In this document: positions 44,758 to 61,448 of the stretch, one piece after another
Layout: each line of letters starts with the position of its first letter
Numbering within the stretch: the stretch's first letter is position 1
Origin: Flavivirga rizhaonensis
GTDB lineage: Bacteria > Bacteroidota > Bacteroidia > Flavobacteriales > Flavobacteriaceae
Assembly: GCF_004791695.1 (NCBI RefSeq)
Contig: NZ_SRSO01000006.1
Location: forward strand, 124,001-188,000
Length of the DNA stretch: 64,000 bases
Reading direction: 5' to 3'
Position numbers and translations under genes: made by a program
The notes under the pieces: model-generated
What the model was told of the DNA's origin: nothing
The model's database searches: none
The model's input: only the letters and a program-made list of their open reading frames with translations

Positions 44758-44760
44758 ATT

Positions 44761-46262: not shown

Positions 46263-46265
46263 TTA

Positions 46266-47603: not shown

Positions 47604-47740
47604 ACCTATATTATTGTTAAATATACCTCAAAGGTAATTATTATTTTAAAGATTTAAAGGTTCAATGGAGTGATGAAATTCCAGTTTCTTTTGTTTTCAT
47701 TCTGGTATAATTATTATTTCTGAAATGTATAAGCCTAAAT

Positions 47741-47903: not shown

Positions 47904-48012
47904 AAATAAAAAATAGTTTATGTTTTGAGTTACTCAAGGGTAGTATTTTACTCCCTTATACTAACATGCAACATAACGTTATGTTTAGCTCTTATTTAAA
48001 AAACATTCGTGA

Positions 48013-48032
48013 ACCGAACTCCCTTTTTATAC
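48013..48032 (+). promoter_or_regulatory. Shared upstream motif, copy 3
   Basis: ACCGAACTCCCTTTTTATAC lies 123 bases before the first gene of the structural module. It matches copy 1 (3758) at 15 of 20 and copy 2 (12236) at 14 of 20. It links the right module to the two left operons. Confidence 0.45.
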
Positions 48033-48135
48033 TGCGGTCTACTTACTAATATTATAGAAATTCGTCATCGAACAAGGTTCAAGGTTTAGAGACCTAGCCA
48101 GATTAACAAGTTTTAAGAATAAACAAACAACACTA

Positions 48136-48309
48136 ATGGCAAAAGAAAATGACATCGCCTGGACACCCATTTTATATTGTGTAGGAGCCGGAATTGCTGG
48201 TATCGCACTAGGAACTTTTTTGGTAGCTCCAATGGTTCAAAAAATGAAGGCAAAAAAGATAGCTGAAAAACAAAAGAAAGCTGTCGCCCCGACAACTAAG
48301 AAAGTATAG
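48136..48309 (+). CDS. Small membrane protein, 57 aa
   Basis: One membrane helix (residues about 10-33, with GAGIAGIALGTFLVAP) followed by a Lys-rich tail. It opens the structural module, 61 bases before the candidate capsid gene. Small proteins with a single helix and a basic tail are typical of the inner membrane of membrane-containing viruses. Confidence 0.7.
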   Translation: MAKENDIAWTPILYCVGAGIAGIALGTFLVAPMVQKMKAKKIAEKQKKAVAPTTKKV

Positions 48310-48369
48310 TATTTAGAGATACAAAAATGTGCTTTCAAAATTTTATAAATCATTTTAAAAGACAAAAAA

Positions 48370-49287
48370 ATGAGCGATTATAATGACGAATTGATGCGTT
48401 ACGAAGATGCTGCTGAAGACCAGTATGATGACTTTGATAACGATGAAGATATGTATGATGATGAGGAAGACGATTTCGAGACTGGATTTGACGGTTTAGA
48501 AGACGGCTATGATGAGGAGTACGAAGACGAGTATGATGGTTTTATAGACGAAGGAGGATATGATGAAGATATGTATGACGATTATTCAAAAACGTCTATC
48601 GGTAAAATCGACCCTAACGACAGGACACTTACCGTGGTCGTTGCCAATACATCTGGTGCAGCAGCCGAAGCTGTTGTTTTTGGTGGTAATGCCGAATCGG
48701 CACAACCAGCAGGAGTTACAGTAGTAGTTGAAGAATCTAGTCATAAGGAGGTTAGAGAAGAAAGTAAATCAAATCCGTTTAAAATTGCGGGAATGAAATA
48801 CTCCGTAAGTAATCCGTTGCAATTTGATAATGTACTGCGTATTGATCGCAGAACCGCATCGGGTTCAAAAACTACTAGGGTTTACCAGCCTCGTAATGCA
48901 ACATCACCTCAAAACTTCTCACAATCTCTGATTGATGATGATAACTTTGAGATGGATGTTACTGGACAGGATTCACTACGTTTAATGATTGAAGATGGCG
49001 TTACTGCCGTATTCACCTTTACAATCAAAGCAAGAGCAAACATTGGAAACCTTCTTAAAGGGGGTAATGTTGCTGAGTTATCACGTGCTCCAAGAACAAC
49101 GGGGCTACCTCAATTGGATTTGCTTAGACGTAGTCGTCCCACGGCTCTTGGGCTTCGTCCCAAACGACCCGTGAGACGTTTTAGAAAACGCACTCGACCA
49201 ACTAGGAATCGTCGAAGAATTGTACGTCGACCAGCATCAACTTCAAGAAGACCCGTTTCTCGACTTGTGAGACGAAGAAGACGTTAA
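48370..49287 (+). CDS. Candidate capsid protein: acidic head, beta domain, Arg-rich tail
   Basis: A protein of 305 residues in three parts. Residues 1-75 are extremely acidic, rich in Asp, Glu, Tyr and Gly. Residues about 78-245 are beta-rich (TLTVVVANTSGAAAEAVVFG, PAGVTVVVEE, then MKYSVSNPLQFDNVLRI and VTAVFTFTIKAR), compatible with a jelly-roll. The last 55 residues hold about 25 Arg, a nucleic acid or membrane contact tail. No signal peptide or membrane helix. A strong terminator follows directly, which suits a highly made product. I do not recognise a family; major capsid protein is my best inference. Confidence 0.6.
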   Translation: MSDYNDELMRYEDAAEDQYDDFDNDEDMYDDEEDDFETGFDGLEDGYDEEYEDEYDGFIDEGGYDEDMYDDYSKTSIGKIDPNDRTLTVVVANTSGAAAEAVVFGGNAESAQPAGVTVVVEESSHKEVREESKSNPFKIAGMKYSVSNPLQFDNVLRIDRRTASGSKTTRVYQPRNATSPQNFSQSLIDDDNFEMDVTGQDSLRLMIEDGVTAVFTFTIKARANIGNLLKGGNVAELSRAPRTTGLPQLDLLRRSRPTALGLRPKRPVRRFRKRTRPTRNRRRIVRRPASTSRRPVSRLVRRRRR

Positions 49288-49326
49288 GCCCAAACAGGCA
49301 GACTGACTTTGCTTACCTAATTCCAG

Positions 49327-49370
49327 ACAGCCAGAGTCGAGGTTTTTTTAACCAAGCTCTGGCTGTTTTT
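49327..49370 (+). terminator. Strong terminator after the candidate capsid gene
   Basis: Perfect ten-base stem ACAGCCAGAG / CTCTGGCTGT with a 20-base loop and a T run, 39 bases after the stop. The following genes lack an obvious new promoter, so partial read-through may set the ratio of capsid to other products. Confidence 0.8.
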
Positions 49371-49387
49371 ATGACAGCCAAGTTACT

Positions 49388-50029
49388 ATGAAACATACAA
49401 AAAGAAATATACCACTTGCACAAAACAGGATAGACTACATCGTATTTCACAATAAGGATGAAGCTGCAAAACTGCTTTATAATTACGGATTTGAACCTCC
49501 TAAAAATCCACAGCATTTAGTTACAGCTATTAAAGAGCTTGTGCAAAAGAAGGGACGTAAAGTCATCAAAGAATTAATTCATATACATCCTGATAAGTCA
49601 GTTATTCTTAAGCTTAATCTTCCTAAAGAAGACAACTTTTGTGAAGCGTGCAACAACAATTCTTATAACGACGAGCAAAATTATTGTGCTTCTTGTGGGC
49701 ATTCTAATTATACTGGTTCAGGGGATAAAGCTACTTTTTTGAGTCAATTAAATACTTATAATGATACTGAGCTAGAAAAGTACTATCAAGGGATTGTAGA
49801 CAAATCGAATAAAGAACCAGACAATAAAATCTTATCTCAAGAAGTACAGATGGTTTGGAACGAGTTGCGTAATCGTAAAGAAATATCAAAAAAAGAAGAA
49901 GATCAACCCAAAGAATCGTCCGAAGATTTCAGAATCACTAAAAATGAACTACTCCTTTTGGGAGCAGTCTTTGTTGCTGGTGCTTTGGTTGGACATGGTT
50001 TAAAATTCAATTTTAATAATGGCAAATAA
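49388..50029 (+). CDS. Zinc-ribbon protein with C-terminal membrane helix
   Basis: A protein of 213 residues. The N-terminal 70 residues form a helical domain also found at the start of the next protein. Residues about 80-100 hold two C-x2-C pairs (FCEACNN and YCASCGH), a zinc ribbon. A charged helical stretch follows and the C-terminus ends in one membrane helix (LLLLGAVFVAGALVGHGL). Eleven bases overlap with the next gene. Probably a membrane-anchored structural or assembly protein. Confidence 0.7.
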   Translation: MKHTKRNIPLAQNRIDYIVFHNKDEAAKLLYNYGFEPPKNPQHLVTAIKELVQKKGRKVIKELIHIHPDKSVILKLNLPKEDNFCEACNNNSYNDEQNYCASCGHSNYTGSGDKATFLSQLNTYNDTELEKYYQGIVDKSNKEPDNKILSQEVQMVWNELRNRKEISKKEEDQPKESSEDFRITKNELLLLGAVFVAGALVGHGLKFNFNNGK

Positions 50030-50651
50030 AACAGATCAAATCAAATACAATCAAGCAATCGATAATATAAGTTACTTGATTCTTAACCATTCTAAACCCT
50101 TAGAGGATTTACTTACAGAATATAACATCATTTTTCAAGTAAAACCAACAAAAGGGCAACTTATCAATGAAGTTGTAAGGCAATTGAAAGCAGGGAATGC
50201 TGCTTTTTCAAAAGATTTAGAAAGTCTAATTAATAAACTCACATCACAACAAGAGGATCAATTTTTTGGAAGTCTTTTAAAAATTGGAGGGAGCTTGATA
50301 GGTGGACTCTTTAAAAAGAAAAGGCGTCCTGCTAGCGGATCGAACACTGGAGCAGCACAAGCACAAGCAGCAGCACAAGCAGCGGCAGTTAAAAGAGATA
50401 TGGAAATGCGTATGCAACGTATGCGTGAAGAACAAGCACGTAAAGAAGAAGAACGCAAGCGTAGAGAAGAAGAAGAACGTCGTCGTCGTGAAGCTGAAGC
50501 ACGTAAAAAAGAAGCGGAAGCCAAGAAAAAGACTAATATGATGCTTGTAATAGGTGGTGCAGTAGTAGTTATAGGTTTAGTAGCAGTTGTAACGATGAAG
50601 TCTAGCAGTTCAAACCAAAGGTTTCGAGATTCAAACCAACGGCTTCAATAG
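50019..50651 (+). CDS. Coiled-coil protein with C-terminal membrane helix
   Basis: A protein of 210 residues. The first 70 residues resemble the N-terminal domain of the previous protein (PLEDLLTEYNIIF and KGQLINEVVRQLK). Then come a Gly-rich hydrophobic loop (GSLIGGLFKKKRR), an Ala/Gln stretch, a long highly charged coiled coil of Arg, Glu and Lys (about residues 122-172), and a membrane helix (MMLVIGGAVVVIGLVAVV). This architecture recalls DNA- or membrane-binding structural proteins. No family recognised. Confidence 0.7.
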   Translation: MANKTDQIKYNQAIDNISYLILNHSKPLEDLLTEYNIIFQVKPTKGQLINEVVRQLKAGNAAFSKDLESLINKLTSQQEDQFFGSLLKIGGSLIGGLFKKKRRPASGSNTGAAQAQAAAQAAAVKRDMEMRMQRMREEQARKEEERKRREEEERRRREAEARKKEAEAKKKTNMMLVIGGAVVVIGLVAVVTMKSSSSNQRFRDSNQRLQ

Positions 50652-50652
50652 T

Positions 50653-51408
50653 ATGATAAACACATACGCGCTTACCGATTATGATGTTTATAACGAAGGA
50701 GCGTTTGATGATTACAGACGCTCATTTCGTAGAAATACAGTTAGAAGAAGAGTGCCACCACGAAGATTTACTACAAAAAAGTCAGGTAGGTATAGGGCTA
50801 CTGGTATTCCTAAACGAATAGGGTATCCAAGAGTCGCACGTAAAGTTGTCAAAAGAAAAAGAGTCGTATACAAACCACCAATAGGGCAATTTAAAGGTTC
50901 TCGCAAAATTCCGACAAATGTTTTGCGCTCAAAGAGTTTGCTCAAACAGAAGCAATACCCAAGAATTGTTCGTAGCATTCCCAAAAAAAAACATCCAACA
51001 TATAGACCCATATTAAAACGAAGCAAAACGTCTCCAAAAATTCCAGTAAATGTTTTGCGTCCGATGCCTAAAACTGTGTCTCGTCCTCAAAATAGAAAAG
51101 TATTGGTTAGACAAAAACCGCAGGTTAAAAGGTTTACAAAACCCATCATTCCTAATGTGGATCATATTACAACAAAAAATAGTGCCATTAAGAAAATGGA
51201 CCTGTCAAAAAATAATCTTAATACAGACGTTCAGAAAAAACCTAAAACCAGACAAACTGAAATGTCACGTCATGCAAAATTATGGCGAGCTACTAAAATT
51301 TATGGAGGCGTTGTTTTAGGGATCGGAGCATTATATGGAATTTACAAATTAGTCAAGAACAAAAGAGGCAATGGACATATTAGCACAAATACAGGAACAG
51401 GACTTTAA
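50653..51408 (+). CDS. Very basic protein with internal repeats and membrane helix
   Basis: A protein of 251 residues, extremely rich in Arg, Lys and Pro, with two copies of a unit containing KIPTNVLR or KIPVNVLR, about 44 residues apart. The last 30 residues form a membrane helix (YGGVVLGIGALYGIYKLV). The charge points to binding of the genome to a membrane or condensation of DNA. It starts one base after the previous stop and overlaps the next gene by 38 bases. Confidence 0.7.
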   Translation: MINTYALTDYDVYNEGAFDDYRRSFRRNTVRRRVPPRRFTTKKSGRYRATGIPKRIGYPRVARKVVKRKRVVYKPPIGQFKGSRKIPTNVLRSKSLLKQKQYPRIVRSIPKKKHPTYRPILKRSKTSPKIPVNVLRPMPKTVSRPQNRKVLVRQKPQVKRFTKPIIPNVDHITTKNSAIKKMDLSKNNLNTDVQKKPKTRQTEMSRHAKLWRATKIYGGVVLGIGALYGIYKLVKNKRGNGHISTNTGTGL

Positions 51409-51598
51409 TCAAATTGGACAACTGGAAGCAGGATTTTTATACGGTTCCGTAAAAAATGTAGGGGCTGTGCCTGCCATAGTCAATGGTGTTACACTTGCTC
51501 CTGGAGAAGCAAAAGGTTATCCGTTTGTCGGTAAAGGGTATCAAGCTGTTTCGTTTGATCCCAACGGTAGCACATTGCGAGTATTAGTGATAATCTAA
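51371..51598 (+). CDS. Small beta-rich protein, 75 aa
   Basis: Starts inside the previous gene, in another frame. The sequence is beta-rich with turns (GSVKNVGAVPAIVNGVTLAP, then GEAKGYPFVGKG). It has no membrane helix and no charged tail, unlike its neighbours. It could be a minor capsid or spike-base protein. Not recognised. Confidence 0.65.
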   Translation: MDILAQIQEQDFNQIGQLEAGFLYGSVKNVGAVPAIVNGVTLAPGEAKGYPFVGKGYQAVSFDPNGSTLRVLVII

Positions 51599-51608
51599 AT
51601 AAAAATAA

Positions 51609-52076
51609 ATGATTACAGGAGAAACAGAAGCTATAATCCAAAGACAATTGGGAGAAGAGGACTATGATGAATTCTTTGGAAGCAGGAAAAAACGTAAGGC
51701 TCGTAGAGCAAAAAGGGCTGCCAAAAAAGTAGAAAGGCGTTCTGCTCCAAAACGTATTGAAAGGAAAGCGAAGCGAAAAGTTTTCTTTTCAAAACTTGGT
51801 CAGGCATATCAGGGTCTTGGAGGAGCAACGGCATTGGGAGCAGCTATAGATACCATTACAAAACCAACTACTGTTTCAAAATATCCCTTAACAAACAACG
51901 AAGTATCGGAAGATTACTCTATTTCTGTTGGGGCTTCAAACGATGATCCACTTCCAGATAAAAAACAATTCCCTATCAAGTATATAATTGTAGGTAGTGT
52001 GGTATTTATAGGAATTATTGGAGTAATAGTTTACGCCAATAAAAAGAAGAAACTCAGAATGCAACAATATAGGTAA
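51609..52076 (+). CDS. Basic protein with C-terminal membrane helix, 155 aa
   Basis: The first 25 residues are acidic, then a strongly basic stretch (KKRKARRAKRAAKKVERR), a linker and a membrane helix near the end (KYIIVGSVVFIGIIGVIVYA). It shares this design with the proteins at 50653 and 50019. The stop overlaps the next ATG. A membrane-anchored DNA contact protein is a reasonable guess. Confidence 0.65.
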   Translation: MITGETEAIIQRQLGEEDYDEFFGSRKKRKARRAKRAAKKVERRSAPKRIERKAKRKVFFSKLGQAYQGLGGATALGAAIDTITKPTTVSKYPLTNNEVSEDYSISVGASNDDPLPDKKQFPIKYIIVGSVVFIGIIGVIVYANKKKKLRMQQYR

Positions 52077-52834
52077 TGATTATTCCAATTCCATCAAATA
52101 AAGAGAGGCTCACTATTACACTTAATATCGAGGCATACCATCCGTTTCAATTGGGAATGCGGGTGTACGATCCCGATCACCCAAACACGTATTATTTTAG
52201 ACGTAAATCCACTTTTATAGAAGGAAAACTAAAACGTGAACTAAAAATTCCGTTACCAGTATCTCCGCAGTTATTGGAACTGGAACTTTATAATAAAGAT
52301 ACAGGTGATGATTATGATTTCAAAATTCAAAATTTTGAAATTGAAAAAATGCCTTCTGGGAAAGTTTGGGCAACTGACGAACAGCACCGTTTTCTGGAAT
52401 TTGCCATTCAGTTTGCTCAAAAAGCGGGATACGTGCCAACTGGATTTTATGATAGTCCTAATCACGAATTTTTGTTTCAATACTTGCCCTCTATCACAGA
52501 TGCTTTTGGAAAGGAGTTGATTACGCCCGCAAGAACACATCGTAAAATGCCTAGAGTGCAGATTTCTCAACGCATGTTCAAATCTTATTCTATTCCTATA
52601 AGGGTAGCAATTTTGGCACATGAAGGATGCCATTGGTTTTTAAATACGCGAAGTCAAAAAACGGCTGATTTATGCGGTATTAAACAATATCTCGATTATG
52701 GTTTTCCAACCATTGAAGCTGTTTATGCCGTGACCAAAGTTTTTGGTCAACATCCTGAAGTTGTAGGGGAATCTCAAATACAACGTACCAAGGATGTTAT
52801 TGCATTTATTGATAAATATAAAGCGGATGCGTAA
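52076..52834 (+). CDS. HExxH zinc metalloprotease
   Basis: A protein of 252 residues. The zinc motif HEGCH is at residues 182-186 (in ILAHEGCHWFLNT), and an Asp in KTADLCG twelve residues on is a likely third ligand. The first 90 residues are a beta sandwich. There is no signal peptide, so it works in the cytosol or the particle. In a capsid gene cluster a maturation protease or a host-wall protein is the natural role; neither is proven. The last eight bases overlap the next gene. Confidence 0.6.
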   Translation: MIIPIPSNKERLTITLNIEAYHPFQLGMRVYDPDHPNTYYFRRKSTFIEGKLKRELKIPLPVSPQLLELELYNKDTGDDYDFKIQNFEIEKMPSGKVWATDEQHRFLEFAIQFAQKAGYVPTGFYDSPNHEFLFQYLPSITDAFGKELITPARTHRKMPRVQISQRMFKSYSIPIRVAILAHEGCHWFLNTRSQKTADLCGIKQYLDYGFPTIEAVYAVTKVFGQHPEVVGESQIQRTKDVIAFIDKYKADA

Positions 52835-54953
52835 AGGAATATACATAGGCTTAGCCACACTAACAGTTATTTCTATTGGAACAGTTCTCTTTATAAAATC
52901 TAAAAAGAAGAAGAAGAAAGATATTGAGACAAATAGTATAAAAAAAGTCATTCAAGGAAAAGAGGACAATTTTATGAGTGCTAGAAGCTCATCTGAACAC
53001 AAAACTCCTGAATTTAAAAAATCACTTCATCGGTGGGGAACTAAACAAGGCGTTATAGATGTTGCCTACCCAAGTGTAAAACACCAGAACACTTCAAAAC
53101 ATAAATCTCTACTAGAACGTTGGGGAACTGAAGAAGGCATTATTGATGTTGCCGATGATAAGACAAGACATGGGAATACATCAGAACAAAATACGCTTAC
53201 ATATAAAAAATTACTTCATCAATGGGGAACTGAACAGGGTATTATTGATGTTGCCGACCATGAGACAAAATATAAGAACTCATCAAAACAAAAAACACCT
53301 ACATATAAAAAATCCCTTCTACGTTGGGGAACAAAAGAAGGTGTTATAGATGTTGCCCTTGAAACAACAAAACGGCAGAAAACCAAAAAATTAAACGCTA
53401 TAAAAATTACAGGGGATTCGATTACAAAAAGTCATCAAATAGATCCTGAAAAAAAAGATAACAGTGAAAATCTTAATGATTATTATAAGATACTGCAAAA
53501 TGACTTCGACGTAACACAAGTAACAGTTAAAAATAGTTCAAATGAAGAACGCACTATTAAACTTTGGAACGCAAGTACTAATGAGCCAATAACTGAAGAA
53601 TTTCCGACTGATATTGATGTTACACAATTTGAAAAAAACTCGGTAGAAGTTGGCGTACATCCCCAAGGTGTGATAAGTAATCCCGCTAATGGCTTTATTT
53701 ATGTCGCTAATCAACTTTCGGACTCCGTTTCCGTTTTGGATATTAACGGCAATACAATAACTACCATTCAACTTGATGCAATCGACTTACCAGGAAGTAC
53801 TTCGCCAGTAGCCATTACTGTCAATACCATTCAATCTAGTTCCAACTATGGTCTGATCTATGTTGTGGGTTCTGTCTCAAATACAGTTACGATAATTGGG
53901 CTTAATCATGAAATAGTGACTGTTATAAATGTTGGTATTCGTCCCCTTGATATAGCCTTCAATCCAATTAATGAATATATATATGTTGCCAATTTTCTAT
54001 CCGACACTATATCTGTAATTGATATCAACGGAATTATTGTTGACTCAATTTTACCAGTTTCAAAGCCAGTTAATATGGCTATCAATTACGAGAATGGGGA
54101 TGTGTTTATCATTAATTCAGGAAATGATAGTGTTGGTGTTTTTAATAAGGATCATGTTCTCATTATTCAATTAAATTACGGATTTAAGCTTGGATCTATT
54201 GTGTATCACCCCATCACTAAAAATATGTATGCCAGTGCTTTAATATTTGGGACTATATTGGTTATAAATCCTTACGATTTTCAAGACGAAAGTATTAATG
54301 TTGGAAACCAACCTTATGGGATAACATACAATGCTAAAAGCCAATTACTATATGTGGGAAATCGAGCCGACGAAACCTATTCCATAATTAATAGTGAAAA
54401 CGTAGTTATTGACACACTCAATTACAGTGATATAAATATTGGACTAGCCTCTCACACCACAGAGAATTTTATTTTCAATACCGATACTTCAAAGAACCTT
54501 TTGCATTTGATTGGTTTCAGGTATGAAACAAACATATCCGTCAATGAAGAATATTATGAATCCCAAGAAAACTTTCAACATAATCCCGCAATTCTCAAGC
54601 ACCTAAAGGTCATTGCTTCAGGCGAAGAAAGGTTTAAAGTTCTTCAATTATTGGATGCATCCATTTCAGGAAAGCAAAGCTGCAAATCATTGTCTTTCGG
54701 CAACTATCATAACCCAAAAAATTTCGACAATATATCTGAAGTATTCGACATCGAAGGCGTTGTTATAGATCGGAAACATGGATGGTGCTTCAAGATCGCT
54801 TCAAACCAGACCATAAGCCTCTTACTGTATTACAAGCAATTTGAAATGTACAATCTGTTACCTGAAAAATCGAGAAAATCATTTGGGGTAAAAATGAGTA
54901 AAGGCATTCCAAAAAGTTGGTTAAAAACTAAACAAGAACCCTCTAAACTATGA
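52827..54953 (+). CDS. Membrane-anchored protein with WGT repeats and YVTN beta-propeller
   Basis: A protein of 708 residues from the ATG at 52827. One N-terminal membrane helix, then four repeats with W69, W99, W133 and W167, each RWGT-(K/E)-x-G-(V/I)-I-D-V-A. A beta-propeller follows (about residues 240-560) with YVTN-type blades (GFIYVANQLSDSVSVLDING, YIYVANFLSDTISVID, LLYVGNRADETYSIIN). The last 150 residues are a separate domain with two Cys. It could be the receptor-binding or spike protein of the particle. It overlaps genes on both sides. Confidence 0.75.
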   Translation: MRKGIYIGLATLTVISIGTVLFIKSKKKKKKDIETNSIKKVIQGKEDNFMSARSSSEHKTPEFKKSLHRWGTKQGVIDVAYPSVKHQNTSKHKSLLERWGTEEGIIDVADDKTRHGNTSEQNTLTYKKLLHQWGTEQGIIDVADHETKYKNSSKQKTPTYKKSLLRWGTKEGVIDVALETTKRQKTKKLNAIKITGDSITKSHQIDPEKKDNSENLNDYYKILQNDFDVTQVTVKNSSNEERTIKLWNASTNEPITEEFPTDIDVTQFEKNSVEVGVHPQGVISNPANGFIYVANQLSDSVSVLDINGNTITTIQLDAIDLPGSTSPVAITVNTIQSSSNYGLIYVVGSVSNTVTIIGLNHEIVTVINVGIRPLDIAFNPINEYIYVANFLSDTISVIDINGIIVDSILPVSKPVNMAINYENGDVFIINSGNDSVGVFNKDHVLIIQLNYGFKLGSIVYHPITKNMYASALIFGTILVINPYDFQDESINVGNQPYGITYNAKSQLLYVGNRADETYSIINSENVVIDTLNYSDINIGLASHTTENFIFNTDTSKNLLHLIGFRYETNISVNEEYYESQENFQHNPAILKHLKVIASGEERFKVLQLLDASISGKQSCKSLSFGNYHNPKNFDNISEVFDIEGVVIDRKHGWCFKIASNQTISLLLYYKQFEMYNLLPEKSRKSFGVKMSKGIPKSWLKTKQEPSKL

Positions 54954-55384
54954 ATAATAACATGATTAATATCGCTTTAAGTCAATATGGAGTTACTGAA
55001 ATTATTGGAGGTAACCACAATCCAATAATCCTAAACTATTTTAAAGAAATTGGTCATACATGGGTAGTTACAGATGAGACTGCTTGGTGTTCGGCTTTTA
55101 TCAATTGGGTAGCCCTAAAGGCTAACAAAGAACGAAGCGGAAAGTTAACAGCCCGTTCTTGGCTCACCGTAGGTCTTAAAACAAGTGAACCCAAGATTGG
55201 GGATGTCGTTGTCTTTTGGAGAGGCAGTAAGAATAGCTGGAAAGGACACGTAGGTTTTTTTATTGGTTTTTCAGAGGACAAAAAGGAAATTTTTTGTCTA
55301 AGTGGCAATCAAAATAATCAAGTTAATATTCAAAAATACCCCAGTTATCGGTTACTGGAATTCAGACAATTAAAAACAATTTAA
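54950..55384 (+). CDS. CHAP/NlpC-type peptidoglycan hydrolase (TIGR02594-like)
   Basis: A protein of 144 residues, single domain. Catalytic Cys47 in AWCSAFINWVA, His100 in KGHVGFFIG, and a polar residue in GNQNN near 120 complete the papain-like site. This is the layout of the TIGR02594 phage and secreted endopeptidases or amidases. No signal peptide, so it needs a holin, a membrane-protein partner or a place in the particle. The start overlaps the previous stop (ATGA). Confidence 0.8.
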   Translation: MNNNMINIALSQYGVTEIIGGNHNPIILNYFKEIGHTWVVTDETAWCSAFINWVALKANKERSGKLTARSWLTVGLKTSEPKIGDVVVFWRGSKNSWKGHVGFFIGFSEDKKEIFCLSGNQNNQVNIQKYPSYRLLEFRQLKTI

Positions 55385-55399
55385 TAAAAAAGAGAAAAA

Positions 55400-55891
55400 A
55401 TGAAAAAAGCAGATTATTTAATCATTCAAAGTACCAACACCAGCGAAGTCAAAGTTTTTGGAAAAGAGGAAATCATTAAAAAACACACATCATCGATTAG
55501 AGATGGTGGATTTGGTTGGAACCGTCCTGGTTTCGATTATCTGGTATTACATGATGGAACATTGCAAACTATCCTTAATGAAGTTAGCCCAACATCAGTT
55601 GATCTATGGGGAATTTCTGAAGGAAAAGGCGGCATTATAGGAACTTCAAAACATATAGCTTACGTAGGTGGTAGAACGCTAAAAGAAACTTGGAGTAAAG
55701 ATTCACGTACCGAACACCAAATTAGCACTCTTGAAGCAGTAGTTAAATTCTATATACTGCGGTTTCCAAATATTATTGTTCTAGGCATGGATGAAATCGA
55801 ATCAAAAAGTATGGAGGAAAACCCAGGGTTTAATGTAGCGGAATGGTTAGAGAAAATGGGCGTTCCTGAACAAAACATTTTTAAGAAATAG
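55400..55891 (+). CDS. Amidase-fold protein without zinc ligands
   Basis: A protein of 163 residues that follows the outline of T7-lysozyme-type N-acetylmuramoyl-L-alanine amidases: first strand, GWNRPGFDYLVLHDGT, IAYVGG, and LGMDEIESKSMEENPGFNV. All three zinc ligands appear replaced: Gln10 in place of the first His, Met130 in GMDE in place of His in GHRD, and Asn141 in ENPGF in place of Cys in CPGF. It should not be catalytic. A structural or peptidoglycan-binding role is likely. Confidence 0.65.
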   Translation: MKKADYLIIQSTNTSEVKVFGKEEIIKKHTSSIRDGGFGWNRPGFDYLVLHDGTLQTILNEVSPTSVDLWGISEGKGGIIGTSKHIAYVGGRTLKETWSKDSRTEHQISTLEAVVKFYILRFPNIIVLGMDEIESKSMEENPGFNVAEWLEKMGVPEQNIFKK

Positions 55892-55892
55892 A

Positions 55893-56078
55893 ATGAAAAC
55901 GATAATCACATTAGGTATTGGTTTCTGGCTTGGTAGACAAATATATATCAACTATGACAAGAAAGAATCCAGACAAAAAGAAGCCAGATTAAAGAAAAGA
56001 TTGCTTGATTTTCTTGAGGTGAACAATTTTTCAAAAACAGAAAGCAAAAAACAGGCAAAAAAAATTTTAGAAAGCTAA
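55893..56078 (+). CDS. Small helical protein, 61 aa
   Basis: A short N-terminal hydrophobic stretch (ITLGIGFWLGRQIYI) followed by a highly charged helix. It lies one base after the amidase-fold gene and stops just before the next start. Probably a membrane-associated component. Not recognised. Confidence 0.6.
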   Translation: MKTIITLGIGFWLGRQIYINYDKKESRQKEARLKKRLLDFLEVNNFSKTESKKQAKKILES

Positions 56079-56534
56079 ATGGCTATACAAGTTGAAGTAG
56101 ATAATCGAAGTTTTTTAATTCCAGAGGCAACAGATCCTTGTGATTTTTGGACGAGCTATTTTAAAGAATTAAAAAGAGAAGTTGACCAAGATAATGCAAA
56201 AATGTTATGGCTTTTAACTTGGAAAAGTACTGGTTCCGCTACATGTACAACGAGTCCTAATTTTAATAAATGGATGCTTAAAAATAACCTAGATGTATCT
56301 AATATGGCTACCAGAAGTATTGCAGACATTTCAGAAATAGGTGGAAATCTTTTTGGTTTAGGAAAAAATTTAACAAAGGTACTATTTATAGGAATTCCAA
56401 TAGTTCTAGTGGTTGTGCTCATTGTCTTTTTAGTAATGCTTCGAAATACTACTAAAAATGCTGATATCACAGATTTAACACAATTGACACCAATAGGTAG
56501 ACTAGGTCATACAGCAAAACTTTTGAGCAAATGA
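56079..56534 (+). CDS. Membrane protein, 151 aa
   Basis: A soluble N-terminal 90 residues with several Trp (FWTSYFKEL, MLWLLTWKS) and one membrane helix (residues about 105-127, VLFIGIPIVLVVVLIVFLVML), then a short tail. The last four bases overlap the next start (ATGA). No recognised domain. Confidence 0.65.
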   Translation: MAIQVEVDNRSFLIPEATDPCDFWTSYFKELKREVDQDNAKMLWLLTWKSTGSATCTTSPNFNKWMLKNNLDVSNMATRSIADISEIGGNLFGLGKNLTKVLFIGIPIVLVVVLIVFLVMLRNTTKNADITDLTQLTPIGRLGHTAKLLSK

Positions 56535-57025
56535 AGGCAACAATGATATATAAAATAGCTGGTTCAGGTGTTGGACTATTACTTGTTGGCAGCACCTATT
56601 TTTCTTTGCGTAAGCGAAAACGAGATAAAATAGCCAGTGCCTTGTTTAAAATTATTCAAACTAAAATGAATCCCGCAACAAATGGTCTGCTGTCTGAAAA
56701 TGCATTTGATATTCATTATTTATCAAAGGTGTTACAGAAAGTAAATAAAGAAGTTTTAGTCTTGAAAACAAGTACGGCATCTAAGTATGCAGACGAAATT
56801 AACAAGGCTTGGGGCGCTTGGTATCAGGGAGGTGATGATGAGGATAAAGTGTACGGTATTTTTAGAAAGTTAAAGGATAAAGTACAGGTATCTCAAGTAG
56901 CAAAATCGTATCAAGACAACCATTCTAAAAATTTAATAGATACGCTTAAAGATCGGTTTGATGCAGCAGAGATAAAGGAAGTATTGAAGATTGTTCAACA
57001 GCTACCCAATTACAGAACGGTATAA
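56531..57025 (+). CDS. Membrane-anchored protein, annexin-like domain, paralogue a
   Basis: N-terminal membrane helix (residues 6-25), basic stop-transfer, then a helical domain of about 110 residues with FDIHYL, GGDDEDKVYGIFRKL, VSQVAKSYQ and a closing LPNYRT. The neighbour at 57036 has the same plan and the same domain (FDMNYV, NDDEDAVKDIFSKKL, VASLSRAFW, LPNYQT). The four-helix pattern with an acidic DDED loop resembles one annexin repeat; this is only a resemblance. Confidence 0.65.
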   Translation: MKATMIYKIAGSGVGLLLVGSTYFSLRKRKRDKIASALFKIIQTKMNPATNGLLSENAFDIHYLSKVLQKVNKEVLVLKTSTASKYADEINKAWGAWYQGGDDEDKVYGIFRKLKDKVQVSQVAKSYQDNHSKNLIDTLKDRFDAAEIKEVLKIVQQLPNYRTV

Positions 57026-57035
57026 ACTTATAATT

Positions 57036-57563
57036 ATGACAATTTCAAAAACAGGATGGTGGATGATAGGCGGTGCAGGATTTGCCGTATTGGGAGTAAG
57101 TGTGTTTTTTATGCTTTCGCGGAAGCGAAAAAAGAATACTTCAAGAACCACCATAAGCCAAGGGAGTGATTTAGGAAATGGCGTGCAAGTTGGTCAAGGG
57201 AATGTGGGTACAACTAAGTCCGAACCTAATTGGGACAACCCGTTTGATATGAATTATGTGAAGGACGTTCAAAAGTGGATCGCTCCTAAAAGAATTGTTT
57301 TACTTGATTCTAATACAGCTAAAAAGTATGCCAAAATCTTAAAAAATGCCAAAGGTATAATCAACGATGATGAAGATGCTGTAAAAGATATTTTTTCAAA
57401 AAAACTGAGAGACAAAACACAAGTAGCTAGTCTATCCAGAGCTTTTTGGGGCTCCTATAAAATGGATATGTGGCAATATTTATCCAGCTTTTTAAGTCAA
57501 AGTGAGATAAACAAATATGTGGATCGTTTTGTAAAGCGCCTACCCAATTACCAAACTCAATAA
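57036..57563 (+). CDS. Membrane-anchored protein, annexin-like domain, paralogue b
   Basis: From the ATG at 57036 (175 residues): an N-terminal membrane helix with WWMIGGAGFAVLGVSVFFML, basic residues, a Gly-rich linker, then the same domain as paralogue a with the acidic DDEDAV loop and the closing LPNYQT. An in-frame upstream codon at 56991 lies inside the previous gene and is less likely. Confidence 0.65.
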   Translation: MTISKTGWWMIGGAGFAVLGVSVFFMLSRKRKKNTSRTTISQGSDLGNGVQVGQGNVGTTKSEPNWDNPFDMNYVKDVQKWIAPKRIVLLDSNTAKKYAKILKNAKGIINDDEDAVKDIFSKKLRDKTQVASLSRAFWGSYKMDMWQYLSSFLSQSEINKYVDRFVKRLPNYQTQ

Positions 57564-57572
57564 CTCTAAACA

Positions 57573-58049
57573 ATGAAAACAACCACTCAAAATCCGCAGA
57601 GTTTCTTTGTGAAAAATAAAGACCTAATCATTGTTGGTGGCACAATAGTGGTTATTGTTGGTGCAGGATTAACATGGTACTATTTAAAAAAGAAAAAGGA
57701 TACTACTAGCGACAATGTTATTTCAGATCCCATTACGCTATCAGGTACTACGGCATCTAAATATACAAAACAACAATTGTCACGAACAGGAATATCTACT
57801 AAGCCAAAATACTCCAATTCTGGTTATCCTATTAAATATGGTAGTCAGCATCGGGATGTGATAATATTACAGCGTTATCTCAAAATCTATAAGGAAAATC
57901 TAGGGAAAACTGGAACTAATAAAGATGGTGTAGACGGAAAATTTGGGGCACTGACATTAAAGGCTGCTAAAAAGAGATTGGGAAAATCTGTGTTTACAGA
58001 AAATGATATCAATGGAATGCGTAAAGCTACAAAAACAATTAAGAGATGA
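57573..58049 (+). CDS. Membrane-anchored peptidoglycan-binding protein 1
   Basis: A protein of 158 residues. One membrane helix (about residues 16-37), a flexible linker, then a PG_binding_1-type domain (YPIKYGSQHRDVIILQRYLK, then GVDGKFGALTLKAAKK). The DG-KFG-T motif is typical. It would tether the membrane or particle to the cell wall, so that the hydrolases act locally. Overlaps the next gene by four bases. Confidence 0.75.
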   Translation: MKTTTQNPQSFFVKNKDLIIVGGTIVVIVGAGLTWYYLKKKKDTTSDNVISDPITLSGTTASKYTKQQLSRTGISTKPKYSNSGYPIKYGSQHRDVIILQRYLKIYKENLGKTGTNKDGVDGKFGALTLKAAKKRLGKSVFTENDINGMRKATKTIKR

Positions 58050-58528
58050 TAAGCAGAAAGACTATTGTTCGCACTGGGTTTTTTTTAGGAAGTTTTTTAA
58101 GCATTGGAATTATAGCTTATCATTTGTTTAAAGATAAAAAGCATACAATAAGTGAAACGGAAATTGAACTCCCTAAAACAAAAGATATTGATAACAGTAC
58201 TAAAAATAAGGATACTAGAAAGCCGTCTCCTAAGACTGTGGTTTCAGAAAAGAAGGCAGTATCGAAAGTAATAGCATTACAAGTATCAAGCCCTGTGATA
58301 CAACCTATTGCAGATGAATTTCCATTACGATTAGGAAGCCAAGGAAAACGAGTGGAAAGATTACAGATCTACTTATTGAGAAACTATGGATGGGCGGGTA
58401 TTGTAACAGGGAAGTTTGATGCCAAAACAGAAGAACGTGTAAAAAAACACCTAAAGGTCGAAGAAGTAGATCAAGCGCTTTTTGAAAATTTAAAATTGAA
58501 TGAATCATCAAGCCCAAAAAACCCATAA
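58046..58528 (+). CDS. Membrane-anchored peptidoglycan-binding-like protein 2
   Basis: A protein of 160 residues with the same plan as the previous one: N-terminal membrane helix (TGFFLGSFLSIGIIAYHLF), long charged linker, then a PG_binding_1-like domain (FPLRLGSQGKRVERLQIYLL, GIVTGKFDAKTEERVKKHL). The two domains are clearly related. Shared operon with overlap of four bases upstream. Confidence 0.7.
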   Translation: MISRKTIVRTGFFLGSFLSIGIIAYHLFKDKKHTISETEIELPKTKDIDNSTKNKDTRKPSPKTVVSEKKAVSKVIALQVSSPVIQPIADEFPLRLGSQGKRVERLQIYLLRNYGWAGIVTGKFDAKTEERVKKHLKVEEVDQALFENLKLNESSSPKNP

Positions 58529-58530
58529 TA

Positions 58531-58779
58531 ATGGCAGTTAAGAAAAACCTTAAAAGTTACCTAGATGCATTGGTTGATGATGAAGGTCTTAAAACCGAAG
58601 TAACTATAAATATCACAAACCAAACATTAATCAAAGTTGCCTTGGTGGTTCTGGCATCTGGAGCTGCAATTGTTCTCGCAGCTCATTTAACAAAAAATTG
58701 GTTTCCTAACCATCAACTTTCATTACTCAATGCAGACGTAACAAACATTAAAGAAACCCTAAAAAAACAAATCAAATGA
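58531..58779 (+). CDS. Small membrane protein, 82 aa
   Basis: A charged N-terminal 35 residues, one membrane helix (LIKVALVVLASGAAIVLAAHL) and a short C-terminal tail. Its end overlaps the next gene by four bases. Not recognised. Confidence 0.6.
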   Translation: MAVKKNLKSYLDALVDDEGLKTEVTINITNQTLIKVALVVLASGAAIVLAAHLTKNWFPNHQLSLLNADVTNIKETLKKQIK

Positions 58780-59099
58780 CAGACATTTCACAACAAATTT
58801 TGGATTATCTAAGCAGTTTAGATTGGGCTTATATCTTAACCTTTATTCTTATTGCCTACAGTATAAATCAATACAAAATAACAGATTGGTTATCTAAAGT
58901 TTTAAAAATAAAAATACAGACAAGATACCGAGTTTTATTAATCGGATTAATCTACGGAATTTTCTTGTTTTTCATAAGAGGATATACCATCGAAAAGGTA
59001 GAACGCTTATTGCAATCCTTTGTGTTTTCAATGGTATTTCACAAACTTATTTTAGAGACAATTCTCAATAAATTCTTTAACCCTAATAAATCCATATAA
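58776..59099 (+). CDS. Holin-like membrane protein, 107 aa
   Basis: Three hydrophobic segments (about residues 16-32, 50-68 and 80-97) and a charged C-terminus. Size, number of helices and position just before the spanin-like pair suggest a holin. No family is recognised, so this is inferred from place and shape. Confidence 0.5.
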   Translation: MTDISQQILDYLSSLDWAYILTFILIAYSINQYKITDWLSKVLKIKIQTRYRVLLIGLIYGIFLFFIRGYTIEKVERLLQSFVFSMVFHKLILETILNKFFNPNKSI

Positions 59100-59101
59100 A
59101 A

Positions 59102-59446
59102 ATGAAATACTTGAAACTTATAATAATGTTGATTACGGTTATCGGAGGCTTTTTGATTTTGATATTCGTCATAGTACCGTCTGAAGAAAAATATAACTTA
59201 AGACACCTGAATAGTCTTCAAAAGACTAATAAACTATTATTGAAAGACAATGAAGAACTCGATCTAAAATTGGACAGCCTCCAGTATGAAGTGGACAGCC
59301 TTTCTAATTTAATTCTTCAGGATAAACAGACCATTTTAAACTTAAACCAAAACCTGAATGAAAAAATTACGACTATTCATCATTTTTCTGATGATGAGCT
59401 ATATGTGTTTTTCTCAAAATTTAAAACCGATAGTACAGCAAATTAA
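59102..59446 (+). CDS. Inner-membrane spanin-like protein
   Basis: A protein of 114 residues: N-terminal membrane helix (residues about 4-26) followed by a periplasmic coiled coil with heptads (LQKTNKLLLKDNEELDLKLD). This is the shape of an i-spanin (Rz-like). The next gene starts 89 bases before its end, in a different frame, as in Rz/Rz1 pairs. Spanins join inner and outer membranes in the last step of lysis. Confidence 0.6.
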   Translation: MKYLKLIIMLITVIGGFLILIFVIVPSEEKYNLRHLNSLQKTNKLLLKDNEELDLKLDSLQYEVDSLSNLILQDKQTILNLNQNLNEKITTIHHFSDDELYVFFSKFKTDSTAN

Positions 59447-59777
59447 GACGGACAAGCGTTTTTGTTTTTCAATAGAGCAATCTCGTTTTATTGCTAAAAA
59501 ATTGCAGATAAATATCTATCAAGATTCAATCATTGATAGATTGACGATTGAAAATAAGCGTTGGCAATCATTGTTGTTCAAAAAAGACAGTATTGATATC
59601 TCCTTTACCAAAAAAGTTCATAATCTGGAGCTAATCAATGAAAATAAAAACGAAGCATTGAACTTGTTAAACGAATCGTTAAAAACAAAGGACAAAGAAA
59701 TAAAACGAGGTAAGTTCCATAAACTTTTATTGGGAAGTGGGCTTTTAATTATGACAGGAATTTTAATAACAAAGTAA
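59358..59777 (+). CDS. Exported spanin-partner-like protein, embedded start
   Basis: A protein of 139 residues starting within the i-spanin-like gene. The signal peptide is clear (MKKLRLFIIFLMMSYMCFSQ), with a flavobacterial SFSQ-type cleavage site rather than a lipobox. A coiled coil follows, and a hydrophobic segment ends the protein (LLLGSGLLIMTGILI). It is not a standard lipoprotein o-spanin, but the overlap with the previous gene and the coiled coil make it its natural partner. Confidence 0.55.
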   Translation: MKKLRLFIIFLMMSYMCFSQNLKPIVQQIKTDKRFCFSIEQSRFIAKKLQINIYQDSIIDRLTIENKRWQSLLFKKDSIDISFTKKVHNLELINENKNEALNLLNESLKTKDKEIKRGKFHKLLLGSGLLIMTGILITK

Positions 59778-60203
59778 ATGGGACACATAGCAGGATATCA
59801 AAGTGACATTACAAATGGGGATGGTAATACAGAAGAAATTTTATTTATACTACCAGAACATATACACCCGGGTATTTTTTATACTCCAGGAAGAAACGTT
59901 TATACTTCGATCAATAAAAACCTTATTGTTTGCAAAGATATTCGCTTAAAAAAAACTAGTGGTCCTGGTGAATTTTCAAACTGGCTACTTAATTTGCCTA
60001 AACCACTCTACCAAGCTGGTTTAAGTTCCCCTGGGACGCTTTTAAGTTTGCAAGGAGAATCTTTTTTCTATTCAATGGATTTAGAAGGAAGGGTTACTAT
60101 TCAAGGTGCTTTGATTGACCCTAACGATGAAATAATTTTTAACATAAATCCATATTTAGCTGAGTTACCATTGCAGTTTAGCTCTTCTCCAAATATTTCG
60201 TAA
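59778..60203 (+). CDS. Beta-rich protein, 141 aa
   Basis: No signal, no membrane helix, no charged tail. Many turns with Pro and Gly (HIHPGIFYTPGRNVYTSI, SSPGTLLSLQG) and alternate hydrophobic residues suggest a beta-sandwich, perhaps a minor capsid or spike protein. It starts right at the stop of the previous gene. Not recognised. Confidence 0.65.
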   Translation: MGHIAGYQSDITNGDGNTEEILFILPEHIHPGIFYTPGRNVYTSINKNLIVCKDIRLKKTSGPGEFSNWLLNLPKPLYQAGLSSPGTLLSLQGESFFYSMDLEGRVTIQGALIDPNDEIIFNINPYLAELPLQFSSSPNIS

Positions 60204-60233
60204 AAACTTTAGACCCTATAAAATAAAAAGACT

Positions 60234-60545
60234 ATGGATATGATGAAGATCGCTGTAATCATTCTTGGAGCGACAGGCTTCTGGAAAATCATTGAATTGC
60301 TAATAAAATTCAGGTTTGAACAACGCCTAAAAAAAGCTGAAATACGAAGCTTGGATATTCAAGCCAATAGTCAGGTTGTAGAAAATTGGGTGCAGTGGTC
60401 TGAAAAAATGGAAAAACGCATTTCTGAACTTGAAGCCAAAAACAAGGAATTGATGGTCACTATTGGCAACCAAAGAAAGCGTATTACTGATTTGAACAAA
60501 TACGTGGGACAACTGGAAAAAGAAATCAATGACTTCAAAAAATAA
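60234..60545 (+). CDS. Membrane-anchored coiled-coil protein, 103 aa
   Basis: N-terminal membrane helix (IAVIILGATGFWKIIELLI), then a long coiled coil (SEKMEKRISELEAKNKELMV and on). A similar helix-plus-coil protein often lies next to the lysis enzymes in flavobacterial phages. It may take part in lysis or in the spanin system. Confidence 0.65.
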   Translation: MDMMKIAVIILGATGFWKIIELLIKFRFEQRLKKAEIRSLDIQANSQVVENWVQWSEKMEKRISELEAKNKELMVTIGNQRKRITDLNKYVGQLEKEINDFKK

Positions 60546-60548
60546 ACA

Positions 60549-60695
60549 ATGAAAAGGGACAAAGGAAGTATAACTATGAATGTAATTTTCGGGGCATTTC
60601 TACTAGTTAGTATTGCTAGAATAAGCATTGATATTTACGGTCGTTATCAAAAAAAGGAGCAGAAAAAGTCTTGTACTTGTAGTAAAGTAAATTAA
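60549..60695 (+). CDS. Tiny membrane protein, 48 aa
   Basis: MKRDKGSITMNVIFGAFLLV followed by IARISIDIYG: one short helix, then a basic tail ending in CTCSK. It begins three bases after the previous stop, and its own stop overlaps the next start (TAATG), which supports its being translated. Confidence 0.6.
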   Translation: MKRDKGSITMNVIFGAFLLVSIARISIDIYGRYQKKEQKKSCTCSKVN

Positions 60696-61207
60696 TGGGT
60701 TTTAAAGAAAATAAACATATCTATTTAGGATTTGGAACTGCTATTTTTATTTTTATCGGTATTGCTTTTGTACATCATTTAAGTAAAAAGGGGAAGGTAA
60801 AAAAAACAGCTCCTATTGATCTATCTGTTTTTGATAGTCCTGATACACCTGGTTCTGGTAATTGTATTGATAAGCAATTATTGTTGATGCTTCAGCAACT
60901 TGCTATAAAAACAGGCTATCCCATATTCGATTGGATTAACTCTGGAGTCCGCAGCAACTACTGGAATACTAAAGTTGGCGGTGTATCTAATTCATCCCAT
61001 AAAATCCCTAGCTGCAAAGCTGTTGATATTAAAGCGCCAACAAAATCTATTCGTAATACATTGGTTTTAGCAGCAAAGGAAATTGGTTTTAAGCGTATTG
61101 GCGTTGGTAAAACCTTTGTTCATTTGGATATTGATGCTTTAAAATCCCAAAACGTAGCTTGGGGGTATCCTTCAGGTAGTAAGCCTGAGATAAACCCTTT
61201 TGTGTGA
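60695..61207 (+). CDS. Membrane-anchored M15-type peptidase
   Basis: A protein of 170 residues. An N-terminal membrane helix (residues about 9-28), linker, then an M15A-like domain. Zinc ligands are present: His102 in SSHKIPSC, Asp111 in KAVDIK, and His143 in FVHLD. These enzymes cut D-Ala or peptide bonds in peptidoglycan. With its N-terminal anchor it would work as a membrane-tethered endolysin. Last gene of the module. Confidence 0.8.
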   Translation: MGFKENKHIYLGFGTAIFIFIGIAFVHHLSKKGKVKKTAPIDLSVFDSPDTPGSGNCIDKQLLLMLQQLAIKTGYPIFDWINSGVRSNYWNTKVGGVSNSSHKIPSCKAVDIKAPTKSIRNTLVLAAKEIGFKRIGVGKTFVHLDIDALKSQNVAWGYPSGSKPEINPFV

Positions 61208-61448
61208 GTTTTGAAATTTTTAAGCGTCTATCTTTTTTGAGTTATAGACTTAGGTGAAAATACTATGATATTTGTGCTTTTACCAAATTATCCAGAAAAT
61301 AAAAATTTTCATTCGAGAAAGTTTTTTCGTAAAACTAATTAATATAAATATCCTACATTTTAGTTGGTTATCTTTTTATATATATCTATTTTTAGAAAAT
61401 AAGATTAGCAACCCTCCCCACTTAGCTAATTGAAAATTAAATTTTACT

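What the first reader, a model, noticed from the sequence alone, without database searches (positions are those of the whole stretch)
48136..61207. Compact virion-and-lysis-like module with no tail, portal or large terminase
About 24 same-strand genes in 13 kb overlap or touch. At least 15 have one membrane helix, several with strongly basic tails. Within it are an HExxH protease, a CHAP hydrolase, a dead amidase fold, two wall-binding proteins, a holin-size protein, a spanin-like overlapping pair and an M15 enzyme. A lysis set argues for a virus; the absence of tail genes and the many membrane proteins argue for a tailless, membrane-containing type. The gene content does not match any element I know (known tectiviruses and FLiP-like phages are much smaller).
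Basis: partly seen in the sequence, partly recalled or inferred. Interest (0 to 1): 0.88.

Follow-up and report, generated by a model that had tools for sequence, protein, structure and literature searches.

The report
Large tailless provirus of marine Bacteroidota
This gene block is one end of a 78,000-base mobile element that sits in a tRNA gene of a flavobacterium and has relatives with a similar gene order in other families of the Bacteroidota; it is likely the dormant form of an undescribed tailless virus predicted to carry a membrane inside its shell, and it would be several times larger than known bacterial viruses of that kind.

The parts
1..627 (+). C-terminal part of a 425-aa winged-helix protein that starts left of the window (L043:19350), early operon
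   Evidence: HTH_24 E 9e-5 on the part in L043; found as gJ19350 in 4 of 6 scanned relatives
633..1112 (+). early protein g633
   Evidence: found in 5 of 6 scanned relatives
1374..2555 (+). glycosyltransferase-like early protein
   Evidence: Glycos_transf_1 E 4.5e-7; in 6 of 6 scanned relatives
3865..6549 (+). N6-adenine DNA methyltransferase; with the next helicase a DarB-like methylase-helicase pair
   Evidence: N6_Mtase E 7e-8; match in 6 of 6 relatives, in ORFs up to 1888 aa
6961..11202 (+). Strawberry-notch type SF2 ATPase
   Evidence: Helicase_C_4 E 8e-28, AAA_34 E 6e-16; found in 2 of 6 scanned relatives
11199..12152 (+). MoxR-like AAA ATPase
   Evidence: AAA_5 E 6e-12; 2 of 6 relatives
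12287..13306 (+). DUF7192 protein next to the AAA ATPase
   Evidence: PF23822 E 1e-7; 1 of 6 relatives
15476..15958 (+). DnaA C-terminal type HTH protein
   Evidence: Bac_DnaA_C E 3e-7, 30.9 bits, just under the cut-off of 31.5; 6 of 6 relatives
15963..16907 (+). conserved protein before the ATPase
   Evidence: 6 of 6 relatives
16813..17817 (+). A32/Zot-type P-loop ATPase, predicted genome-packaging motor
   Evidence: Zot in 22 of 23, Pox_A32 in 11 of 23 members; phrog_2666 in 22 of 23; hhalign to PM2 P9 88% over 55 columns; no TM in 27 sequences
17818..48135 (.). cargo region between ATPase and late operon (30.3 kb here, 0.2-20 kb in relatives), with defence-like genes at its right end
   Evidence: gap sizes; DrmC-like 44854 E 5e-10, AlbA-type 46266 E 1e-21 to a pAgo-labelled model
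48136..48309 (+). 57-aa single-TM protein with basic, predicted cytoplasmic tail; first gene of late operon
   Evidence: C-terminal flank more basic in 35 of 35; 5 of 6 scanned relatives
48370..49287 (+). candidate major capsid protein: acidic N-terminus, predicted jelly-roll core, Arg-rich C-terminus
49388..50029 (+). C-terminal-TM protein, soluble part predicted cytoplasmic
   Evidence: topology 32 against 2
50019..50651 (+). C-terminal-TM protein with a charged, low-complexity stretch
   Evidence: topology 38 against 0
50653..51408 (+). very basic protein (pI 11.7) with a weak TM near its C-terminus
51371..51598 (+). 75-aa protein, 75 aa in 33 of 34 homologues
51609..52076 (+). single-TM basic protein
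   Evidence: 39 of 39 with TM
52076..52834 (+). HExxH metalloprotease-like protein
   Evidence: HEGCH invariant in 40 of 40; 6 of 6 scanned relatives
52794..54953 (+). beta-propeller protein, possible receptor-binding part
   Evidence: Lactonase PF10282 E 7e-6; 35 of 35 loci
54950..55384 (+). CHAP wall hydrolase of phage type
   Evidence: CHAP E 3e-7; phrog_1259 E 1e-31; relatives in 502 phage records; 4 of 6 scanned relatives
55400..55891 (+). amidase-fold protein without its GH zinc ligand
   Evidence: phrog_822 E 6e-16; GH absent in 33 of 33
55893..56078 (+). small basic protein
   Evidence: 29 of 35 loci
56079..56534 (+). single-TM protein
   Evidence: 40 of 40 with TM
56531..57025 (+). 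N-terminal-TM protein (TM over threshold in half of 40), paralogue of the next
   Evidence: 28% identity, E 7e-17
56991..57563 (+). N-terminal-TM protein, soluble part predicted cytoplasmic
   Evidence: 31 against 0
57573..58049 (+). N-terminal-TM protein with weak peptidoglycan-binding match
58046..58528 (+). N-terminal-TM protein with a sub-threshold peptidoglycan-binding match
   Evidence: PG_binding_1 E 1.3e-4
58531..58779 (+). single-TM protein
58776..59099 (+). holin-size membrane protein
   Evidence: 0.97 of 39 with TM; 35 of 35 loci; 6 of 6 scanned relatives
59102..59446 (+). spanin-like inner-membrane partner (N-terminal TM, then a long charged part)
   Evidence: TM at residue 7, N-flank more basic 20 against 7; overlaps next gene by 89 bp
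59358..59777 (+). overlapping partner with a signal-like N-terminus and a C-terminal hydrophobic segment
59778..60203 (+). soluble acidic protein; matches in ORFs up to 448 aa in relatives
60234..60545 (+). single-TM protein with coiled-coil-like part
   Evidence: 28 against 0
60695..61207 (+). TM-anchored M15 wall peptidase, last backbone gene
   Evidence: Peptidase_M15_3 E 1.6e-9; C-in 34 against 0; 35 of 35 close loci but 2 of 6 scanned relatives; its Kordia homologue ends about 190 bp before the right repeat
61208..64000 (+). right-hand cargo, continuing past the window to the att copy at about 72831 (L044:8831)
   Evidence: PDC-M60C match in L044:2190-3395

Best explanation
The operon at 48136-61207 is the right-hand late block of a 77.9-kb element integrated in a tRNA-Met gene, and that element is likely the provirus of a temperate, tailless virus with an internal membrane, whose shell would be built by the predicted jelly-roll protein 48370 and filled by the predicted packaging ATPase 16813. 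SHOWN: att repeats, integrase, conserved gene order, the protein families cited and their conserved motifs. INFERRED: on induction the integrase excises the element at the 45-bp repeats and the early operon (winged-helix protein, methylase-helicase pair, AAA ATPase, DnaA-type HTH protein) runs replication and protects the DNA. INFERRED: late products with single membrane helices gather in the inner membrane with their soluble domains in the cytoplasm. The jelly-roll protein coats that face, so the patch becomes a vesicle inside a shell, and the ATPase pumps DNA into it. INFERRED: the anchored wall enzymes (M15, wall-binding proteins) end on the outer face of the vesicle and serve entry. The holin-size protein, the overlapping spanin-like pair and the CHAP enzyme would serve exit. 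The region between the ATPase and the late operon, and here also the right flank, carries cargo.
For: Integration: a 45-bp stretch with the 3' end of tRNA-Met repeated exactly 77.9 kb away, the integrase between. Partial tRNA repeats also flank the copies in Algibacter (70.6 kb) and Kordia copy 3 (53.2 kb); in the latter the M15 gene ends about 190 bp before the right repeat. One unit: the ATPase lies 175 bp to 5.7 kb upstream of the late operon in the 26 of 39 loci where both fall in the fetched stretch (in 13 they do not both fall in it), and the order from early genes to 59358 holds, for the genes found, in six elements, four of them diverged. Packaging: Zot 22 of 23, Pox_A32 11 of 23; PM2 P9 88%. 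The order ATPase, short TM protein, candidate capsid gene matches P9-P7-P2 in PM2. Shell: 9-strand core (pLDDT 70.7, pTM 0.65); 27 of the 50 best VIA rows are virus-particle proteins, several of them the same virus, including PRD1 and PR772 coat proteins and CCMV (my count). Membrane: 15 of 24 late genes with TM; soluble domains cytoplasmic in nine proteins, M15 34 to 0, while the spanin-like 59102 goes the other way. Phage-type lysins. Mobility: late blocks 93-96.5% identical in nucleotides between records of different genera. Portal, Terminase_6N and relaxase models absent from the genome; TraG/T4CP only on another contig.
Confidence: 0.62

Rival explanations
1. The element is a non-viral integrative element that moves DNA between cells in contact with a previously unknown membrane machine: the ATPase is a DNA translocase, the single-TM proteins its channel, the wall enzymes open the way.
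For: Methylase-helicase pairs occur in conjugative elements as well as phages (PMC5512222, passages read); defence-like cargo; no free virus found.
Against: No match to Relaxase PF03432 in the genome and TraG/T4CP only on contig C81; other relaxase families were not tested. A holin-size protein, an overlapping spanin-like pair and phage-type lysins point to release by lysis.
Confidence: 0.14
2. The late operon makes vesicles or capsid-free particles (a gene-transfer or vesicle-export system), and 48370 is a nucleoplasmin-like DNA-condensing protein rather than a shell protein.
For: Top Foldseek PDB rows are nucleoplasmin cores; 48370 has an acidic tract and an Arg-rich tail; other very basic late proteins.
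Confidence: 0.12
3. A filamentous (inovirus-like) element: the Zot-type ATPase extrudes DNA and the short TM protein with a basic tail (48136) is the coat.
For: Pfam Zot 22 of 23, phrog_197 Zot-like 11 of 23; 48136 has a coat-like layout.
Against: ATPase without a TM segment in 27 of 27, lysis-type genes present, element 53-78 kb.
Confidence: 0.05
4. A tailed phage with head and tail genes too diverged to recognise.
For: phrog_2666 'terminase large subunit' matches the ATPase in 22 of 23; the CHAP gene resembles baseplate or tail lysozymes.
Against: No portal or Terminase_6N match in the genome; no long tape-measure-like gene in the late block, whose longest ORF is the 719-aa beta-propeller; 15 of 24 genes are membrane proteins.
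Confidence: 0.05

Closest known systems
Corticoviridae (PM2), order Vinavirales
   Same: ATPase of similar type (hhalign 88% over 55 columns); order ATPase - short protein (P7, membrane protein as recalled) - capsid gene - small structural genes
   Different: Genome 10 kb against 53-78 kb; no P2-like capsid protein by sequence; the predicted core here is one jelly-roll, not two
Helvetiavirae (Thermus phage P23-77, Halopanivirales)
   Same: Single-jelly-roll capsid proteins (recalled), packaging ATPase gene near the capsid genes, many small structural proteins, virion lysozyme
   Different: Two capsid proteins against one candidate; no sequence link; 17 kb
Flavobacterium phages FLiP and PhiCjT23
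   Same: Tailless (recalled), lipid-containing, flavobacterial hosts; PhiCjT23 is temperate (PMC9719478, passages read)
   Different: PhiCjT23 has an ssDNA genome of 7.6 kb, dif-site integration, prophages of 6-8.4 kb (PMC9719478); FLiP has ssDNA and no packaging ATPase (PMC5894146, passages read)
Phage P1 DarB and other methylase-helicase polyvalent proteins
   Same: Adenine methylase beside a Strawberry-notch type ATPase, and a sub-threshold DarA_C match (PMC5512222 passages)
   Different: Two separate genes here; packaging of these proteins into a particle is untested

Membership tests
Integrated mobile genetic element | Site-specific integration with direct repeats and an integrase | tested here: met
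   45-bp exact repeat with the tRNA-Met 3' end, integrase adjacent; partial tRNA repeats in two relatives
Corticoviridae / Vinavirales | P9-type packaging ATPase | tested here: inconclusive
   hhalign 88%, but 55 columns around Walker A only
Corticoviridae / Vinavirales | Double-jelly-roll capsid protein | tested here: inconclusive
   Core of 48370 models as one 8-9 strand domain; no sequence match to P2
Corticoviridae / Vinavirales | Genome of about 10 kb | tested here: not met
   53.2, 70.6 and 77.9 kb by att repeats
Helvetiavirae | Two single-jelly-roll capsid proteins | tested here: inconclusive
   One candidate only; no sequence match to VP16 or VP17; 51371 and 59778 not folded
Finnlakeviridae (FLiP) | Small circular ssDNA genome without a packaging ATPase | tested here: not met
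   Element of 53-78 kb with an A32/Zot-type ATPase
Caudoviricetes | Portal and large terminase | tested here: not met
   PF04860 and PF03237 no match in the whole genome, controls ring; phrog_2666 label on the ATPase noted; other portal and terminase models not tested
Inoviridae | Zot/pI ATPase with a transmembrane segment (recalled) | tested here: not met
   0 of 27 ATPases with a TM segment
Integrative conjugative element | Relaxase and type IV coupling/ATPase genes inside the element | tested here: not met
   PF03432 none in genome; PF19044 and PF02534 only on C81; other relaxase families not tested
Membrane-containing tailless virus (as a working type) | Particles with internal lipid | not testable with these tools
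   Needs induction and particle analysis

The most novel reading that the evidence does not exclude
A new high-rank group (order or above) of temperate, tailless, membrane-containing dsDNA viruses spread through the Bacteroidota, with 53-78 kb genomes that carry up to 30 kb of cargo in a fixed hotspot, a single-jelly-roll shell protein with an acidic head and an Arg-rich tail, and a PM2/A32-type packaging motor, so far missed by virus catalogues because its shell protein matches nothing known.
Probability: 0.45. Interest if true: 0.92.

Novelty: new variant of a known kind. Interest (0 to 1): 0.82.

Why it matters
If true, tailless membrane viruses are not limited to small genomes, and a group of proviruses in marine and other Bacteroidota, able to carry tens of kilobases of cargo between genera, has been missing from virus databases. 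Kordia algicida OT-1 alone holds three copies, so the claim can be tested in a cultured, sequenced strain. It would also add a candidate single-jelly-roll capsid lineage to the question of how PRD1-type viruses arose.

Tried and rejected
A chance cluster of short ORFs: rejected, because the same 24 genes recur on one strand (8 of the 24 found in all 35 loci of 18 kb or more, the rest in 8 to 34 of 35) in rising order and motif residues are invariant.

A stand-alone module: rejected, because the ATPase operon lies directly upstream in relatives.

Low-confidence full-length fold of 48370 (pLDDT 55.6) and its searches: kept only as a pointer; the core was refolded with 83 sequences. Foldseek against BFVD and PDB gave no match at E 0.001 or better. 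Absence of a family from those lists excludes nothing.

PDB sequence searches with the ATPase and capsid profiles found nothing significant. An Rfam scan of one Kordia flank found nothing. The plasmid collection had no relative of the protease, the only query sent to it. INPHARED does hold relatives of the CHAP enzyme (502 records) and four weak ones of the M15 enzyme. Ten paper searches showed no title or abstract start describing this element; passages or an abstract were read for four papers only, and the library lacks most subscription journals, so a description elsewhere is possible. The Charybdis elements (PMC12324425, abstract read) are 4.6 kb and not the same.

The tandem Kordia copies (L061, L062) have no tRNA beside the integrase and their ends were not settled. 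No integrase homologue was detected in the stretches of G071, G303, G670 and G466 (the G670 contig ends inside the early block), so att sites there are unknown. Integrase homologues were found in 6 of 12 genomes asked, one of them weak.

Topology counts use ORFs from the first possible start codon, so some N-terminal flanks may be a few residues too long.


Full report
1. The observation. The 24 ORFs are there, on one strand, touching or nearly touching. Fifteen of 24 have a predicted membrane segment, against 1 of 18 in the early block of the same element and 6 of 35 on the upstream chromosome. The named enzymes check out: HExxH in 40 of 40 sequences; CHAP C47/H100/N120 and M15 H102/D111/H143 in at least 97% of 39; the amidase-like protein without its GH ligand in 33 of 33, so it is a conserved pseudo-enzyme. 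The wall-binding domains are weak Pfam matches, and holin and spanin are assignments by size, position and overlap only.

2. It is one end of a larger element. The window is C70:124001-188000 of a 4.9-Mb genome. About 5 kb left of the window, after host genes I recognise as aromatic-amino-acid genes (recalled from sequence), lies tRNA-Met, then a tyrosine integrase, a MerR-type protein and a protein I read as a repressor (no Pfam match) on the minus strand, then the early operon on the plus strand. A 45-bp stretch that takes in the tRNA's 3' end recurs exactly at window coordinate 72831, which gives an element of 77.9 kb. An Algibacter copy has tRNA-Met with a partial repeat 70.6 kb away. Kordia copy 3 has tRNA-His with a partial repeat 53.2 kb away. 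In both, the far repeat differs from the tRNA's own end in the T stem. In Kordia the last backbone gene before the right repeat is the M15 enzyme, which ends about 190 bp before it, so the late operon forms the right end of the element.

3. Relatives. A scan of genome contigs with the protease gave 39 loci whose titles name Flavobacteriaceae genera or MAGs of Flavobacteriaceae or Bacteroidia, 57-74% identical. The late genes lie on one strand in the 35 loci of 18 kb or more, in rising order. The ATPase gene lies 175 bp to 5.7 kb upstream of 48136 (or 48370 where 48136 was not found) in 26 of 39 loci; in the other 13 the two were not both in the stretch held, which says nothing. A profile of the 48370 protein matched 8 of 299 genomes of the family and 8 of 395 of the class, own genome included in both; the other seven of the latter lie in five other families. 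Six contigs chosen by me (Kordia copy 3, Algibacter, G071 of the same family, and G303, G670, G466 of two other families) keep the order for the genes found, with about 6-20 kb between ATPase and late operon. Found in all six: glycosyltransferase, methylase, DnaA-type HTH, 15963, ATPase, 48370, 49388, 50019, 52076, 52794, 55400, 58776, 59102, 59358. Not in all: gJ19350 4 of 6, 48136 5 of 6, CHAP 4 of 6, 56079 3 of 6, helicase 2 of 6, M15 2 of 6; some contigs or stretches end early. Protein searches found 355 ATPase and 368-369 capsid-candidate proteins at E 0.001; where a source names the organism among the 120 listed each time, it is a member of the Bacteroidota. Late blocks are 93-96.5% identical in nucleotides between records titled Winogradskyella, Ulvibacter and Patiriisocius, and between Aquimarina and Dokdonia, which points to recent transfer between genera; some of these are MAGs, so the titles rest on binning.

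4. Packaging motor. The ATPase has the highest median identity of the proteins compared (83%). Pfam Zot matches 22 of 23 members, Pox_A32 11 of 23. PHROGs gives phrog_2666, labelled terminase large subunit, in 22 of 23, and Zot-like in 11. Against single sequences, hhalign gave PM2 P9 88% over 55 columns, PRD1 P9 28%, P23-77 7%. It has no membrane segment in 27 sequences. I read it as an FtsK/HerA-type packaging ATPase; packaging itself is inferred.

6. Topology. By the positive-inside rule, 48136 (35 to 0), 56991 (31 to 0), 60234 (28 to 0), 60695 (34 to 0), 58046 (24 to 4), 57573 (21 to 5) and 56531 (19 to 1, TM in half of the sequences) have their larger parts in the cytoplasm, and 49388 (32 to 2) and 50019 (38 to 0), with C-terminal helices, likewise. 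59102 of the spanin-like pair goes the other way (20 to 7). 50653 (6 to 9), 51609 (11 to 11), 56079 (12 to 2 but near-equal means) and 58531 (7 to 14) show no clear or no such bias; 58776 and 59358 have more than one hydrophobic stretch by eye and were not interpreted. A wall enzyme anchored on the cytoplasmic side makes little sense in a cell but fits a membrane that ends inside a virion. This is an inference from charge counts.

7. What it is not. Portal and Terminase_6N models have no match in the genome, nor has the Relaxase model; TraG and coupling-protein models hit another contig only. The PM2 and FLiP types fail on genome size. I therefore file it under no known family, and say that it likely works like a membrane-containing tailless virus.

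8. Cargo. The 30 kb between ATPase and late operon hold, by eye, a SusC/SusD-like set, regulators and small secreted peptides (recalled, not searched), and at the right end defence-like genes. More defence-like genes lie right of the module.

9. Literature. PhiCjT23 is a 7.6-kb temperate ssDNA phage of Flavobacterium (PMC9719478, passages). FLiP lacks a packaging ATPase (PMC5894146, passages). Methylase-SWI2/SNF2 pairs and DarB in P1 heads are from PMC5512222 (passages). Tailless Vibrio prophages under 16 kb are from the listing of PMC11630473 only. None of the titles and abstract starts in the ten searches describes this element.

Noticed in passing
window 33302-34489: One ORF made of two nearly identical tandem halves of about 150 residues each.
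   Followed up: no
window 23594-25119: Three look-alike small secreted-looking peptides in a row.
   Followed up: no
window 21856-22854 and 38577-39521: Two look-alike regulators with an AraC-like C-terminus in the cargo (family recalled).
   Followed up: no
L066:6710-14512: In Kordia algicida a second copy of the tRNA-His repeat lies 7.8 kb beyond the element, leaving a separate short segment that may be another passenger.
   Followed up: partly
L068:1352 / L070:12057 and L065:1999 / L066:6710: The far att copies differ from the tRNA's own end in the T stem on both arms, as if they bring a replacement tRNA end.
   Followed up: partly
window 56531-57563: Two adjacent late genes are paralogues (28% identity, E 7e-17), as are 57573 and 58046 (29%, E 6e-7).
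   Followed up: yes
window 51371-51598: A late protein that is exactly 75 aa in 33 of 34 homologues; not folded.
   Followed up: no
G000:C81:45748-76066: A TraG-type ATPase and a coupling-protein match on another contig suggest a separate conjugative element in the same genome.
   Followed up: no
G685:C1:423348 and 4344646: Two more full-length homologous integrases in Kordia algicida, away from the three late modules found.
   Followed up: no
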